Source of the DNA: an uncultured bacterium
GTDB taxonomy: Bacteria; Verrucomicrobiota; Kiritimatiellia; RFP12; UBA1067
Length of the DNA stretch: 34,737 bases
Direction of reading: 5' to 3'
Assembly: GCA_903935195.1 (NCBI GenBank)
Contig: CAIZQW010000184.1
Span: forward strand, 1-34,737
Part shown: in pieces, positions 25,970 through 34,191 of the stretch
Layout: every line of letters begins with the position of its first letter
Position numbering within the stretch: the stretch's first letter is position 1
Notes under the pieces: generated by a model
Seen by the model: only the letters and a program-made list of their open reading frames with translations
The model's database searches: none
Told to the model about the DNA's origin: nothing
Translations under genes and position numbers: made by a program

Positions 25970-26494
25970 GTGAGCACAATTCGGCAGAAAGTGAGTGTAG
26001 GCCTGGTCTTCTTCGGTCTCTGGACATTAACCCAGGCCGTGTCAGATGGCGTGTTTGATATTTTCTTTTGTCGGGTTCCAACGCTTTTGGCAGCGCTCTA
26101 TCTGAATGTGCCGCATGCGGGGACGCTCTTGTTGTTGACTGATTCCGATGTTTTTGAGGTGAAGCGCGCGTGCGGAGGCTCTGATTTCTTCGTCATTGTT
26201 ACCGCCATGGTCACTTGGTATTATCTTAAACGCGCTCGGCCGTTGACAGGGCTGTTGATACTCATGGCGCCACTCTGGCTGCTGGTTAATCTGGTTAACA
26301 GTATGCGAATTGTGGCACTGGTCTGGGTTCATGCTCTCAGTGCTGAGGTTGTCCCGGAGCGGTTTCTGGGCTCGCTTCATTTGGCGAGTGGCGTGTTAAT
26401 TTTTTTTCCAGCGCTTCTAGGCGTTTGGTGGGCGTGCAAAAAGGTATGGGAGGTTGAAGATGAGCGACAAACAGGTGAATCCACTCTTTCCTGA
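25970..26494 (+). CDS. Exosortase/archaeosortase family protein (XrtK-like, small)
   Basis: Multi-TM; candidate Cys/Arg/His triad in VKRACGGSDFFVIV, LVNSMRIVALVWVHAL, SLHLASGVLIFFP. GTG start directly after the uxaC stop. Confidence 0.75.
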   Translation: MSTIRQKVSVGLVFFGLWTLTQAVSDGVFDIFFCRVPTLLAALYLNVPHAGTLLLLTDSDVFEVKRACGGSDFFVIVTAMVTWYYLKRARPLTGLLILMAPLWLLVNLVNSMRIVALVWVHALSAEVVPERFLGSLHLASGVLIFFPALLGVWWACKKVWEVEDERQTGESTLS

Positions 26495-29489
26495 GATTTT
26501 AAAGGGACGTCTCTCTCTCTTATTGTCCGTAATGTTCCCTTCGGTCCTGGCTGTGGGTGTGAATGCGCTTGCCTTCTGGCTGCTCTGGGATGAGATGAAG
26601 ACTGCCTCTCAACATAATCATGCGTGGACGTTGTTGATGACCAGCCTGTTGCCTGCGTTGGTGAGCATTCCCTTCTTTTTTCGGCGCACGGTCCTTCCGA
26701 CATGGGCTCAAGCTCTTTTGGGGCTCTCTTGTATCGTGCATCTGGTCGCTTTTTGTTATCTCGCAAGTTCAGCTATTCCCTCGGATACACCCGAGTGGAT
26801 GGTAGGGCCCTCCTTCTGGCTGATCCAATTTGCAACCATGACGCCTGGACTCTTTCTCGGGCTCTGGCGTGTCGCCAGCATTCGGACGCGGTTCGCACCG
26901 CTCCAGGATTTTACTGTTTCGCTTATTGTCTCGATCGTCGGCCCTGGACTACTCTATGTCTTCTTAACCGTGACGATGTTTGGCTTTAGGCATGTAAGAA
27001 GTTCGTCTTTGGAGTGGCTGTGGTCTTCCTTGCTCAATGTGTTCATGATCATCTGCCCTGTCTTTTTCTTTTTGGGTCTCTTGAGATGCTTGATGTGGGT
27101 GCGCCGGTTTGTTGAACAAAAGAGCCTTCAGTATCGTCCCCTTCAGTTGCTCTACGTCGCCCTGGTCGCCCTGGTCTTCCCCATTTCAGGGTTGGTTCTC
27201 AATATAGCGATTCCCTTTCCAGCGGATTTTCAGAATCCATGGCCCTATCTGCTGACGCTCTTCAATGCCGCAGCGCTGATGATTCCAACGACGAGAATCG
27301 CCTGGGTAGACGCACTCACCCGTTTTTTGCGCTGGGCGCTGATGCCGTTCACCTTCTACTTCTTTATCGTCTTCCTGCCGTTCATGCCCTTTTCCCTTTT
27401 TGCCATTATCGCGATGGGCGCTGGCTTTTTGATCTTGGCGCCGACGCTTCTCTTCTTTGTGCAACTTCAGGAACTCCGCAAAGATAACGACACTTGGATG
27501 GCTGCGGGCGTGTCGGCCCGGGGACGCTTTTTGCGCGCCTTAGGGATGCTTGCCATCCTGCCGCTCTGCTTCCTTGCCCGTTCAGAATATGACCGTTATG
27601 TTCTTCATAGCACCTTGGATTACTATTATGCACGAGAGGATATGAAGGATGCCCAGAGTCCGGTCTCAGCACGCGATGTCAAACGTATCCTCAATCGTGT
27701 CCGTGCCTTCAGAGATGGCTCAGAGATTCCGTATCTCACAAACTATTATAATTGGCGCGTCTTTGACAACCTGCTGCTCCAAGAGGAGAAGTTTAATGAC
27801 CTGTGGCGCGCCTTCGTGGATGAGTATCCGCCCGAGAAAGAGAAGGAGGATTTCTCGCGTAATATGTTTGCCGGGATGTTTGGAGGACGCACGCGTGACC
27901 CGGGTTCGAGGTGGGGTTCGCGTTTCCGGCCACCCCGCAATGTCGCGCTGACCGAGGTGACAACCTCGTTTAGCGCAACAAATGGCGAGACCCACGCATG
28001 GATACGCCTCTCCCTGACCTCCCACGAAAAACAGCAGGCCGAGTATGAGGCAAACATTGAGGTGCCAGCCGCTGCCGTTGTCGCGGGGTTGCGCCTGAAG
28101 ATCGGAACGAATTGGGTGGATGCCCGGATTGTGGAACGTAAGGCAGCGGAGTGGGTCTATCGTTCGATCCGCGATGTGCGGCGCGATCCAGCCTTCTTGC
28201 GATATGAGGGGGAGAACCTCCTGAAGTTGAGCGTCTTTCCGATTGAACCCGAGGAGACGCGGCAGGTGGAAATGCTCATCGTCTATCCTGCAGGCTTCGC
28301 GCGTACGGTGAGGATTGGGGATCGCCCCGTCTGTATTCCTGTCGACGGAGATGAACAAGGAAACATCAAATTCTTTGCGTATGCACCAGGCGTCCTGGTG
28401 ACCCAAAAAATCAGATATCTCGAAGAACCGGTTTGGCACGCAGAGGGGGCCTCGGTCATCCTGGACTGTTCCAAGGGGCAAGGCTGGGATGGTGCCTCTT
28501 TGGCAGCGGCACTCCGCCGTGTCCGTGATGAAATGAAGCTCCCGATCCGTTCGATCCTCTTTGCCAATTTTGAGACGAAGTTCCTCACGGTCGCCGAGCA
28601 GGATCCGGCTTTGTTAGCGGCCCAATGCCTGCGGGAGATGCTGCCGGAACGGGGTGGACTCGACATGGATATTGCCCTTCGGCGTGCGGCCTGCACCACC
28701 GCCCTTTCGTTTACAAAGGATCCTTCAACATGGCGTGTACCGGAGCTCGTGCTGCTCCGCAATCACGTGAAGACCCCGCCACCTGCTAAGTCGGGTCGTG
28801 CGCGTGCCGCAGATTTGAAAGGGAAAGAACCTGTCCCATGTTCAGCTCCGAAGGTGAAGCCAAACACCTTCCGTGCTGCCCAGCAGTGGTTGCCGATGCT
28901 GTCGGAAACCCTCGCAGTGATTGTTTCAGAAAAGCCAGTATCAACAGAAGTGCTCTGTGAGAGCAAGACGACTTTTGATCGGACGCAACTGATTCCTGTC
29001 AGCATAGGAAGTCAGATTCGCTGGATCCCGGCAGATGGGTCTCGCGCCTGCTTCTTCTGGGATGTCACGGGCGATCAATCAGTATTGCCAGCTGTTTGGG
29101 ATACAAAGAGTTCGAGCTTTAGTGAAATTCCTGCAGTAAGCCGGATGCCACAAGAGAGCGTCTGGGCAAAGGGTGCTGAGGCGTGGCGTCTACAGACGCG
29201 GTACCAGCAACTGCCGCATCTTGAAGATCTGAGGCGTGATATTCTGAAGCAAAGCTGGTCCTGCGGAGTCATCACTGATGTGGGGTCCTATATCGCCGTT
29301 GAAAACAGCGCCCAGTGGAAGATGCTGGAGTTAAAACAGCGTCAGACCTTGGCCGCCAATGCTGCCCTTGATACGGTTGGAGTTCCTGCGCCCTCGATGG
29401 TTCTGCTTCTCGTGGGACTTGGCGTGTTCCTAGCTGGCTGCAAGTTATACAAGAGGACTTTTTCGAATGAGAGAAGCGTTCTACGATGA
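26460..29489 (+). CDS. Large multi-TM protein with VIT-like domain and C-terminal VPAPS sorting signal (MSEP-CTERM-like)
   Basis: N-terminal ~8-10 hydrophobic segments; VIT-like TEVTTSFSATNGETHAWIRLSLTSHEKQQAEYEANIEVP; C-terminus VPAPSMVLLLVGLGVFLAGCKLYKRTFSNER. Overlaps the exosortase-like CDS by 35 nt. Confidence 0.75.
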   Translation: MSDKQVNPLFPEILKGRLSLLLSVMFPSVLAVGVNALAFWLLWDEMKTASQHNHAWTLLMTSLLPALVSIPFFFRRTVLPTWAQALLGLSCIVHLVAFCYLASSAIPSDTPEWMVGPSFWLIQFATMTPGLFLGLWRVASIRTRFAPLQDFTVSLIVSIVGPGLLYVFLTVTMFGFRHVRSSSLEWLWSSLLNVFMIICPVFFFLGLLRCLMWVRRFVEQKSLQYRPLQLLYVALVALVFPISGLVLNIAIPFPADFQNPWPYLLTLFNAAALMIPTTRIAWVDALTRFLRWALMPFTFYFFIVFLPFMPFSLFAIIAMGAGFLILAPTLLFFVQLQELRKDNDTWMAAGVSARGRFLRALGMLAILPLCFLARSEYDRYVLHSTLDYYYAREDMKDAQSPVSARDVKRILNRVRAFRDGSEIPYLTNYYNWRVFDNLLLQEEKFNDLWRAFVDEYPPEKEKEDFSRNMFAGMFGGRTRDPGSRWGSRFRPPRNVALTEVTTSFSATNGETHAWIRLSLTSHEKQQAEYEANIEVPAAAVVAGLRLKIGTNWVDARIVERKAAEWVYRSIRDVRRDPAFLRYEGENLLKLSVFPIEPEETRQVEMLIVYPAGFARTVRIGDRPVCIPVDGDEQGNIKFFAYAPGVLVTQKIRYLEEPVWHAEGASVILDCSKGQGWDGASLAAALRRVRDEMKLPIRSILFANFETKFLTVAEQDPALLAAQCLREMLPERGGLDMDIALRRAACTTALSFTKDPSTWRVPELVLLRNHVKTPPPAKSGRARAADLKGKEPVPCSAPKVKPNTFRAAQQWLPMLSETLAVIVSEKPVSTEVLCESKTTFDRTQLIPVSIGSQIRWIPADGSRACFFWDVTGDQSVLPAVWDTKSSSFSEIPAVSRMPQESVWAKGAEAWRLQTRYQQLPHLEDLRRDILKQSWSCGVITDVGSYIAVENSAQWKMLELKQRQTLAANAALDTVGVPAPSMVLLLVGLGVFLAGCKLYKRTFSNERSVLR

Positions 29490-31762: not shown

Positions 31763-32719
31763 ATGGTGGCAAAATTCATTTATAAGCGTGGTGAAGAGGA
31801 AAAGGAGATCCCTTGCGCACCGCTTTTGACGATTGGACGCGTGCCTCCAAACGACATTGTTGTTCACCATCCGAAGGTCTCCCGCAACCATGCGATTATC
31901 CGCATGCTTCAGCCTGGCGAATATTACGTGATTGATATTGGTAGTACGAATGGCACCCTAGTGAATAATAAGCGCGTCGTGACGCCGACATTGTTAGTGA
32001 ACGGCGATGTGATTGCGGTCGAGGATGGCACCCTGACCTATCATGCGCAGGAGACGGTTGTCGAGGATGAAGACGGTGATGATGCGACCTGCGCTCAGAT
32101 GACCATGGCCTCCTCCATGGCGGACTTAACCTCGGAGATCACGATCCTGGTGTGCGACATACGTAGCTATACCCGTTTAAGTGAAAAGATGCCGACTAAG
32201 GATCTGGCTCAGATGATGGCCAAGTGGTTCAAGATGGCGACGCAGGTGATTGAAGAAAATGCCGGCACGATTGATAAGTTTATCGGCGATGCGGTTATGG
32301 TGCGCTGGACCATCAGCAACAAGGATAGTAAAGAGAGCGTGATCCACGCCCTCAAGGTTGCGAAAGCGCTCAACGACATGAGCCTTCAGATCAACCAACT
32401 CTTTGTAGCAACTCTGCCGCAGCCCTTCCGAGTCGGCGTCGGGATCAACACCGGTGCCGCTGCGCTTGGCAGTTTGGGTGGTGGCGGGTATCGGGAGTAT
32501 ACCGCACTCGGGGATGCCGTCAATATGGCCTTCCGGTTTGAGAGCGAAACCAGGAATTTAGGCAAGGATGTGGTAGTGGGTATTGATTCATGCACCCATC
32601 TCCCCAAAGAGCTCTGGGAAAAAGCAATGATCCCTGTGACGGTCAAAGGAAAGACAGAAGCGGTCTCAGTCTGGCCGCTCACTTATGCGGAATTAGAGCA
32701 CGCGATCGCTGGCCTTTAA
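31763..32719 (+). CDS. FHA domain plus class III adenylate/guanylate cyclase
   Basis: FHA: LLTIGRVPPNDIVVHHPKVSRNHAII...IGSTNGTLVNNKRV. Cyclase: ILVCDIRSYTRLSE, DKFIGDAVMV, GINTGAAALGSLGGGGYREYTALGDAVNMAFRFE. Confidence 0.92.
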   Translation: MVAKFIYKRGEEEKEIPCAPLLTIGRVPPNDIVVHHPKVSRNHAIIRMLQPGEYYVIDIGSTNGTLVNNKRVVTPTLLVNGDVIAVEDGTLTYHAQETVVEDEDGDDATCAQMTMASSMADLTSEITILVCDIRSYTRLSEKMPTKDLAQMMAKWFKMATQVIEENAGTIDKFIGDAVMVRWTISNKDSKESVIHALKVAKALNDMSLQINQLFVATLPQPFRVGVGINTGAAALGSLGGGGYREYTALGDAVNMAFRFESETRNLGKDVVVGIDSCTHLPKELWEKAMIPVTVKGKTEAVSVWPLTYAELEHAIAGL

Positions 32720-32727
32720 ATTCAGTT

Positions 32728-34191
32728 TTACGTCAATGTTCGCACAATGGCTTCGGCAAGGGCGTGGTCTATGCCTGACACTGCTTCAATCTCTTCGAGG
32801 GTGGCGCGGGAAAGCCGGTAAATGGATTTGAAATGCCTGAGAAGCGCGGTCTTTTTAGCCGGGCCGATGCCGGGGATAGCATCCAATGCTGATTCGCGGA
32901 TGGTGCGGTTGCGAAGCCAGCGATGATAGGTCAGTGCAAACCGGTGGGCTTCATCCCGGAGACGCGTTAAGACACGCAGGGCTTGTGAGTCCAAGGGCAG
33001 GCGAATGGGTTCGCGTCCGTCGTCCACGACGACCTCTTCAAACTGCTTGGCAATACCCACACTGGGAATTGTCGCCATTCCAATCTCGGCGAGTGCTTCG
33101 CGCGCAGCGCGCAGTTGCGTGATGCCACCGTCAATCAGGATTAAGCCGGGCAGGGGCTTTCCCTCATCCCGTACGCGGGTATAACGCCGTTTCACCACCT
33201 CGGCAATGGAGCGGGGATCATCGGCGCCCTCGACTGTCTTAATTTTAAAGTGACGGTAGAAGCGCGGATCGGGAATTCCATCAAGTGCGACGACCATGCT
33301 TGCAACGGAATGGGTCCCAAAAAGATTTGAAATATCAAAGCATTCAATGTGTTTGGGGAGTTGGGGCAATCCGACCAGCTCCTTCAGTTCTTTGACTCCT
33401 TTACGCGCATCAGCGAGATGAAGGGCAGGAGCCCTTGTGATAATACCACGGCGCCGTTTCACCATCTCTTCTAAGGCTAGCCAGGTGTCACGCAGGTTGG
33501 CGGCCTTCTCGTAGTTCTGTTCCTGCGCAACCTCCTGCATCTGTTCCTTGAGTTCCCGGATGATCCCCATGCGCTCGCCCCGCAGGAATGCGCAAGCTTC
33601 TTCAAAACGTGCTTGATACTCATCTACAGAGATTCGGTTGACGCAGGGCGCTGAACAGAAGCGGACGATATCGTTGATGCAATGTTTGTAGGCTTCTGCA
33701 TCTGGATGGATGGGGGTGCATTTCCGTAATCCAAACCGCTTCTCGGTAAAATCAAGGACGGTGCGGACAACAGAGTCTGAGGGGAAGGGACCGAAGTAGA
33801 CGGCGTTGTCCTCGCGGATGATGCGGCAAGTGGTGATGCGGGGGAAGGGTTCATGCGGATCTGCCCGGAGAGACGGATATTGCTTGTCATCGCGCATGAG
33901 GACATTGTAACGCGGACGATAGGTTTTGATGAGATTGCTCTCGGTCAGTAAGGCCTCAGCCTCGCCCTTGACAATAATCACCTCGATATCCGCGATGCTG
34001 TTCACCATGCTACGCAACTTGGGCGGTGCCTTGCGCAGGGTGGAGTCACGGAAGTAGCTCGTGACACGCTTGCGTAGCGAGACGGCCTTGCCCACATAGA
34101 TGATCGTCCCCTTGCGGTCACGCATCAGGTAGCAACCGGGTTTATCCGGAAGCGCGGCCAGCTTTTGTTGGATGAGGGACGGGGTAATCAT
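32728..34191 (-). CDS. uvrC: UvrABC system protein C (compact)
   Basis: GIY-YIG LPDKPGCYLMRDRKGTIIYVGKAVSLRKRVTSYF; UVR motif; RNase H-like ECFDISNLFG, LILIDGGITQL, RDEAHRFALTYHR; HhH AIPGIGPAKKTALLRHF. Confidence 0.95.
   Translation of the reverse strand: MITPSLIQQKLAALPDKPGCYLMRDRKGTIIYVGKAVSLRKRVTSYFRDSTLRKAPPKLRSMVNSIADIEVIIVKGEAEALLTESNLIKTYRPRYNVLMRDDKQYPSLRADPHEPFPRITTCRIIREDNAVYFGPFPSDSVVRTVLDFTEKRFGLRKCTPIHPDAEAYKHCINDIVRFCSAPCVNRISVDEYQARFEEACAFLRGERMGIIRELKEQMQEVAQEQNYEKAANLRDTWLALEEMVKRRRGIITRAPALHLADARKGVKELKELVGLPQLPKHIECFDISNLFGTHSVASMVVALDGIPDPRFYRHFKIKTVEGADDPRSIAEVVKRRYTRVRDEGKPLPGLILIDGGITQLRAAREALAEIGMATIPSVGIAKQFEEVVVDDGREPIRLPLDSQALRVLTRLRDEAHRFALTYHRWLRNRTIRESALDAIPGIGPAKKTALLRHFKSIYRLSRATLEEIEAVSGIDHALAEAIVRTLT

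What the first reader, a model, noticed from the sequence alone, without database searches (positions are those of the whole stretch)
25970..29489. One-exosortase/one-substrate sorting pair (XrtK / MSEP-CTERM-like)
A small multi-TM protein (174 aa) carries the spaced Cys, Arg, His pattern of exosortases (RACGGSDFF, NSMRI, LHLASG). The next gene, overlapping by 35 nt, encodes a ~1009-aa membrane protein ending in a short motif, one TM segment and a basic tail (VPAPSMVLLLVGLGVFLAGCKLYKR), the layout of exosortase substrates. From memory, the TIGRFAM pair XrtK/MSEP-CTERM links a dedicated exosortase with a single large adjacent membrane/VIT protein; this locus looks like that pair or a diverged relative. 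Function of such systems is not established.
Basis: partly seen in the sequence, partly recalled or inferred. Interest (0 to 1): 0.78.

Follow-up and report, generated by a model that had tools for sequence, protein, structure and literature searches.

The report
Dedicated exosortase and its single substrate
Two overlapping genes encode a tiny membrane processing enzyme and the one large membrane protein it appears to process, and relatives that lost the enzyme carry re-written tails matching other enzymes in their genomes, which points to the tail as the enzyme's recognition tag.

Summary
25970-26494 encodes a 174-aa exosortase-fold protein (TIGR04178 and Pfam EpsH over cut-off; C68, R113 and H137 invariant in 14 relatives). 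26460-29489 encodes a 1009-aa MSEP-CTERM protein (TIGR04286, 338.7 bits, cut-off 150) with about 11 TM helices, a VIT/degenerate-vWA ectodomain and an AP-TM-basic tail. The enzyme's best named subfamily is XrtK, but it scores below the XrtK cut-off (29 vs 55), as apparently does its whole clade: a diverged XrtK/MSEP pair, not a strict XrtK. In 162 genomes of the order the two genes occur in the same 22 genomes, adjacent; phylum-wide the enzyme is upstream in 41 of 43 assessable genomes. The two exceptions are informative sisters that lost XrtK. One tail is now canonical PEP-CTERM in a genome whose only detected exosortase is EpsH/XrtA-type; the other is VPDSG-like in a genome with an XrtC-like exosortase and other VPDSG proteins. 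This is strong comparative evidence that the tail is the exosortase signal. Cleavage chemistry and product fate remain unshown. Same-genome bonus: an apparent pseudo-exosortase (C->S, H->S) on contig C66.

The parts
25970..26494 (+). XrtK-like exosortase, 174 aa, GTG start directly after the TAA of the upstream glucuronate isomerase gene; catalytic residues C68, R113, H137
26460..29489 (+). MSEP-CTERM VIT-domain membrane protein, 1009 aa, predicted sole dedicated substrate; overlaps the exosortase gene by 35 nt
26447..26459 (+). Shine-Dalgarno-like GGAGG just upstream of ATG 26460, inside the exosortase gene
   Evidence: direct reading
26508..27629 (+). N-terminal polytopic membrane region (about residues 17-390, about 11 TM helices)
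27942..28331 (+). VIT domain region (predicted beta-rich fold, about residues 495-624; Pfam VIT hit at residues 523-607 in the TTG-start numbering)
28449..28925 (+). vWA-like alpha/beta region (about residues 664-822), degenerate MIDAS (DCS; DxS kept in many but not all homologues)
29376..29486 (+). C-terminal sorting tail VGVPAPS - TM helix - CKLYKR basic end

Best explanation
This is a two-gene, one-enzyme/one-substrate exosortase cassette. The exosortase (C68-R113-H137, active site on the periplasmic side) recognises the C-terminal VPAPS-TM-basic tail of the MSEP-CTERM protein encoded by the overlapping next gene. It then cuts at or near the Ala-Pro motif through a Cys thioester-type mechanism. 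Because the substrate is held in the inner membrane by about 11 N-terminal helices, the cut does not release it. It frees the C-terminus of the periplasmic VIT/vWA ectodomain from its last membrane anchor, most likely handing it to an acceptor (lipid or envelope glycan) or leaving it as a mature free end. SHOWN by sequence comparison: the pair, its co-inheritance, the invariant triad, the conserved tail, and tails matching another exosortase system in two relatives that lost the enzyme. INFERRED from archaeosortase/exosortase biology: Cys catalysis, the cut site, and the side of the membrane. NOT SHOWN: the acceptor and the biological role.
For: Family hits. Triad invariant in 14/14, also read by eye in the further relatives that cover it. 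Identical 22-genome distribution in 162 genomes of the order, adjacent. Enzyme upstream in 41/43 assessable genomes when the phylum sample is added. No other conserved neighbours. Mirrored distances r = 0.83, 0 of 5000 permutations as high. Tail architecture in 27/27. Exception 1 (L105): tail over cut-off for PF07589 and TIGR02595; that genome's only detected exosortase is EpsH/XrtA-type, and the genome has other PEP-CTERM proteins. Exception 2 (L106): tail best in Pfam for VPDSG-CTERM; that genome has an XrtC-like exosortase (235 bits) and four over-cut-off VPDSG proteins, while five comparison genomes have none. Predicted fold of the enzyme pLDDT 87.6; C68 precedes TM3 (71-87), R113 is 20 residues into helix 93-124, H137 is 7 residues into helix 130-168, i.e. 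the same membrane face. ArtA Cys173/Arg214/Arg253 are required for catalysis, and ArtA substrates are cut and lipid-anchored (PMC9263693).
Against: XrtK cut-off is not met (29.1 vs 55). No biochemical data exist for any XrtK in the library searched. The genome holds another intact exosortase that might cross-process the tail. The two exceptions are sister lineages (96/93), so they may represent one loss of the enzyme, not two. The VPDSG match is below its curated cut-off (18.7 vs 25 bits) and the XrtC match is below its own (235 vs 300). The MSEP score of the window rests mostly on its N-terminal two-thirds.
Confidence: 0.8

Rival explanations
1. The tail of the window's protein is processed by the genome's general EPS-type exosortase (584 aa, contig C66), and the adjacent small exosortase is redundant or regulatory.
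For: C66 holds an intact exosortase-EpsI fusion with C, R and H, no PEP-CTERM protein in the genome passes cut-off, and the window's tail is the best match to both PEP-CTERM models.
Against: All 22 pair-bearing genomes of the order keep the small enzyme next to the substrate, and its triad is invariant. The tail scores below both PEP-CTERM cut-offs, unlike the relative that truly lacks XrtK.
Confidence: 0.08
2. The small protein is a dedicated insertion or assembly partner of the MSEP protein with no proteolytic activity.
For: Very small (174 aa), strictly paired, overlapping genes; the fold has no solved relative here.
Against: Cys, Arg and His are the only strongly conserved polar set together with N110. 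Where the enzyme is lost the tail matches another exosortase system rather than merely decaying.
Confidence: 0.07
3. The adjacency is an operon accident and the C-terminal helix is just a last transmembrane anchor.
For: Every polytopic membrane protein may end with a TM helix and basic residues.
Against: No other neighbour is conserved across distant genomes, presence/absence is identical in 162 genomes, a proline motif precedes the helix in 27/27, and tails in the two exceptions match a different exosortase system.
Confidence: 0.03

Closest known systems
XrtK / MSEP-CTERM pair (TIGR04287 / TIGR04286)
   Same: Same two-gene order, small exosortase plus about 1000-aa polytopic VIT protein with a C-terminal sorting tail; the substrate passes the equivalog cut-off. 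A relative in the same phylum (L085) passes both cut-offs (102.7 and 692 bits) and has the literal MSEP tail.
   Different: Enzyme scores 29 bits against a cut-off of 55; tail is VPAPS rather than MSEP, and the tails read in this order are mostly DAP/PAP-type.
XrtN system VIT-domain protein (TIGR04477)
   Same: Exosortase-associated VIT-domain protein; 45 bits over the VIT region, and all 10 aligned homologues match weakly.
   Different: Far below its cut-off of 250; different exosortase.
VIT/vWA (vault-like) proteins with LPXTG, GlyGly-CTERM or PEP-CTERM tails (PMC3237569; TIGR03788 marine sortase target)
   Same: VIT/vWA protein paired with a dedicated sorting enzyme; tail type varies among homologues.
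   Different: Not shown to be the MSEP family with its polytopic N-terminus; they use sortase or rhombosortase as well as exosortase.
Archaeosortase A / PGF-CTERM (PMC9263693)
   Same: Motif-TM-basic tail and Cys-Arg membrane transpeptidase logic.
   Different: Many substrates, lipid anchor shown, third residue Arg instead of His, archaeal.
Inter-alpha-inhibitor heavy chain 1 (PDB 6fpy)
   Same: Best fold match of the predicted ectodomain (E = 4e-10).
   Different: Secreted animal protein, 9% identity, no exosortase.

Membership tests
Exosortase/archaeosortase superfamily (TIGR04178, PF09721) | Profile score over curated cut-off | tested here: met
   39.7 vs 23 (TIGR04178), 29.6 vs 25.7 (PF09721)
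Exosortase/archaeosortase superfamily (TIGR04178, PF09721) | Invariant Cys, Arg, His | tested here: met
   C68, R113, H137 invariant in 14 aligned homologues
Exosortase/archaeosortase superfamily (TIGR04178, PF09721) | Triad converges in space | tested here: inconclusive
Exosortase/archaeosortase superfamily (TIGR04178, PF09721) | Proteolytic processing of the tail | not testable with these tools
   needs co-expression or proteomics
Exosortase K (TIGR04287) | Score over curated cut-off 55 | tested here: not met
   29.1 bits (28.4); matched by all 14 homologues, best E 1.5e-13, which by my estimate is about 51 bits, still under 55
Exosortase K (TIGR04287) | Adjacent MSEP-CTERM partner | tested here: met
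   41 of 43 assessable genomes
MSEP-CTERM protein (TIGR04286) | Score over curated cut-off 150 | tested here: met
   338.7 bits
MSEP-CTERM protein (TIGR04286) | Literal MSEP motif before the C-terminal TM | tested here: not met
   VPAPS in the window; MSEP is literal only in L085 among those read
PEP-CTERM protein (PF07589, TIGR02595) | Tail over curated cut-off | tested here: not met
   16.6 vs 20.7 and 14.9 vs 16 for the isolated tail; best in the genome

The most novel reading that the evidence does not exclude
The exosortase joins the freed C-terminus of the VIT/vWA ectodomain to an envelope acceptor while the N-terminus stays in the inner membrane, making a covalent staple between inner membrane and envelope. 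From general knowledge, animal inter-alpha-inhibitor heavy chains (the nearest fold) are also cut at a C-terminal Asp-Pro and joined to a polysaccharide. In addition, the tail can be rewritten in evolution to hand the same protein to a different exosortase class.
Probability: 0.17. Interest if true: 0.8.

Novelty: new variant of a known kind. Interest (0 to 1): 0.52.

Why it matters
What bacterial exosortases do to their substrates is still not settled: in a 2025 study of a cyanobacterial exosortase, covalent anchoring of the substrates remains a hypothesis (PMC12188702). Most systems have many substrates and larger enzymes tied to polysaccharide loci. A 174-aa enzyme with one overlapping-gene substrate is about the smallest system in which cutting, cut site and acceptor can be tested. 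The natural tail switches give a ready specificity test across three exosortase classes (XrtK-like, EpsH/XrtA-type, XrtC-like) on one protein family. The window's enzyme and apparently its aligned relatives fall under the current XrtK cut-off, so an annotation gap can also be closed.

Tried and rejected
Literature on XrtK or MSEP-CTERM: none in the held library; Haft 2012 is not held. Solved-structure relatives of the enzyme: none by sequence or fold (best E 0.39, unrelated helical proteins). Triad distances: model coordinates are not exposed, so only helix positions were used. Conserved third gene in the locus: rejected, only the pair is conserved (uxaC upstream is shared only within the genus). 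Two independent losses of XrtK: not supported, the two exceptions are sisters at 96/93. An intact vWA metal site: rejected as a general feature, the DxS motif is missing in several homologues. One family scan failed on wrong coordinates and was repeated. The 1e-27 chance figure for identical 22-genome sets ignores shared ancestry and is not used as a probability; the profile used for the enzyme was also built from adjacent pairs, which biases towards pairs, though it was searched without reference to the partner.

Full report
OBSERVATION. The exosortase frame is 25970-26494. The large protein is best started at ATG 26460, preceded by GGAGG inside the upstream gene, which gives 1009 aa and a 35-nt overlap. 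The exosortase GTG directly follows the TAA of a glucuronate isomerase gene without a visible ribosome site, so it may be translationally coupled to it. That upstream gene is shared only within the genus.

WHAT THE PROTEINS ARE. The 174-aa protein passes the general exosortase/archaeosortase model (39.7 bits, cut-off 23) and Pfam EpsH (29.6, cut-off 25.7). Its best named subfamily is XrtK, at 29.1 bits against a cut-off of 55. All 14 homologues aligned match XrtK, but by my conversion of the best E-value none reaches the cut-off. The 1009-aa protein passes the MSEP-CTERM equivalog model (338.7, cut-off 150) and has a VIT domain. So this is an MSEP-CTERM protein with a diverged, sub-cut-off XrtK. 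A fully canonical pair exists elsewhere in the phylum (L085: 102.7 and 692 bits, tail EPMSEP).

ACTIVE SITE. C68, R113 and H137 are invariant across 14 sequences with as little as 19% identity to the query, along with F73, N110, G141 and F145, and also in the further relatives that cover them. The structure prediction is confident (pLDDT 87.6, pTM 0.78). The Cys lies just before helix 71-87, the Arg 20 residues into helix 93-124, and the His 7 residues into helix 130-168. Given the alternation of helices and the basic loop 86-89, all three are near the non-cytoplasmic face (inference). Distances could not be measured. No solved structure resembles the fold.

SUBSTRATE ANATOMY. Hydropathy and the predicted model (pLDDT 73) give about 11 N-terminal helices, then a large ectodomain, then the tail helix with basic end. 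The ectodomain has a VIT fold followed by a vWA-like fold. Its best solved match is inter-alpha-inhibitor heavy chain 1 (E = 4e-10). The vWA metal motif is partly kept (DxS) and lost in several homologues. The segment YIVVENSAQWKML just before the tail is strongly conserved. In 27 of 27 complete homologues a proline, usually in AP or EP, sits directly before the last helix, followed by a net positive end.

THE PAIR IS EXCLUSIVE AND CO-INHERITED. In 162 genomes of the order, strong hits to the enzyme profile (60 bits or more; other exosortases score about 37 or less) and MSEP hits to the membrane region fall in the same 22 genomes, with the genes side by side; in G016 they are about 0.9 kb apart. 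In a sample of 388 genomes of the phylum, MSEP occurs in 23 genomes outside the order. Two lie at contig edges, 19 have the enzyme upstream (in L094 about 1.7 kb away), and two lack it. Together that is 41 of 43. No other neighbour is conserved, and evolutionary distances of the two proteins track each other (r = 0.83). In G031 both genes group with distant relatives, which suggests transfer as a unit.

THE TWO EXCEPTIONS. L105 (Lentisphaerae GWF2_57_35, same record as L051) has a tail over cut-off for both PEP-CTERM models (28.5 and 25.6 bits). Its genome has a single detected exosortase, of EpsH/XrtA type next to an EpsI-like gene, and eight other PEP-CTERM matches over cut-off. L106 (a Lentisphaerae lake MAG, same record as L055) has a tail whose best Pfam match is VPDSG-CTERM (18.7 bits, cut-off 25). 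Its genome has an exosortase whose best family is XrtC, the VPDSG-specific one (235 bits, cut-off 300), and four VPDSG proteins over cut-off; five comparison genomes, the window's included, have none. The VPDSG idea was formed from the tail letters before the enzyme and genome were checked. The two are sisters inside the XrtK-bearing part of the tree (96/93), so the simplest history is one loss of XrtK followed by adaptation of the tail to whichever exosortase remained. This is comparative, not experimental, evidence that the tail is the recognition signal. Tail variation among VIT/vWA proteins in general was noted before (PMC3237569), so the principle has a precedent; I found no report of it for this family in the held library.

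OWN GENOME. Two more exosortase genes sit on contig C66. The 584-aa one is intact (PCSG, GNMFR, FYHDYSG) and fused to an EpsI-like domain. The 367-aa neighbour has Ser in place of the Cys and Ser in place of the His and looks like a pseudoenzyme. No PEP-CTERM protein passes cut-off in this genome, and the best match to both PEP-CTERM models is the window's own tail. The genome is a 92%-complete draft in 466 contigs, so missing substrates cannot be excluded.

MECHANISM. Best supported: the enzyme recognises the tail at the outer face of the inner membrane and cuts near Ala-Pro with C68. By analogy with ArtA (PMC9263693), the acyl-enzyme may pass the new C-terminus to an acceptor. The unusual point is that this substrate stays anchored by its N-terminal helices, so processing cannot be a simple release step. 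It must mature, free or attach the far end of the ectodomain. Confidence: dedicated pair with the tail as signal 0.8 (as scored), cutting about 0.7, covalent transfer rather than hydrolysis about 0.4.

VERDICT. Real, correctly read by the first stage with small corrections, a diverged variant of a known but, as far as the held library shows, experimentally uncharacterised pair. The added value is the near-exclusive pairing across the phylum and the natural tail switches.

Noticed in passing
L038:10173-11273 (-), own genome contig C66: A 367-aa exosortase homologue with Ser in place of the catalytic Cys and Ser in place of the His, directly beside an intact 584-aa exosortase-EpsI fusion: apparent pseudo-exosortase.
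   Followed up: partly
L038:11249-13000 (-): Intact EPS-type exosortase-EpsI fusion in a genome with no PEP-CTERM protein over cut-off: its substrates are unidentified.
   Followed up: partly
L105:3129-6077 (-) and L106:5646-8792 (+), Lentisphaerae MAGs: MSEP-family proteins without adjacent XrtK whose tails match PEP-CTERM and VPDSG-CTERM, fitting the exosortases of their genomes.
   Followed up: yes
L042:8279-11475 (-), G031:C205: Both genes of the pair group with relatives outside the order, suggesting transfer of the cassette as a unit.
   Followed up: partly
L047:6523-10852 (+): In G016 the MSEP gene is split in two frames and lies about 0.9 kb from the exosortase gene: decaying pair or assembly error.
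   Followed up: no
window 32728-34191 (-): UvrC homologue of only 487 aa that matches the N- and C-terminal parts of the model in two stretches, as if a central part were missing.
   Followed up: no
window 31763-32719 (+): FHA domain fused to an adenylate/guanylate cyclase domain.
   Followed up: no
L049 record title: The same-genus MAG is deposited as Akkermansia muciniphila, a name that seems doubtful given its nearest relatives here.
   Followed up: no
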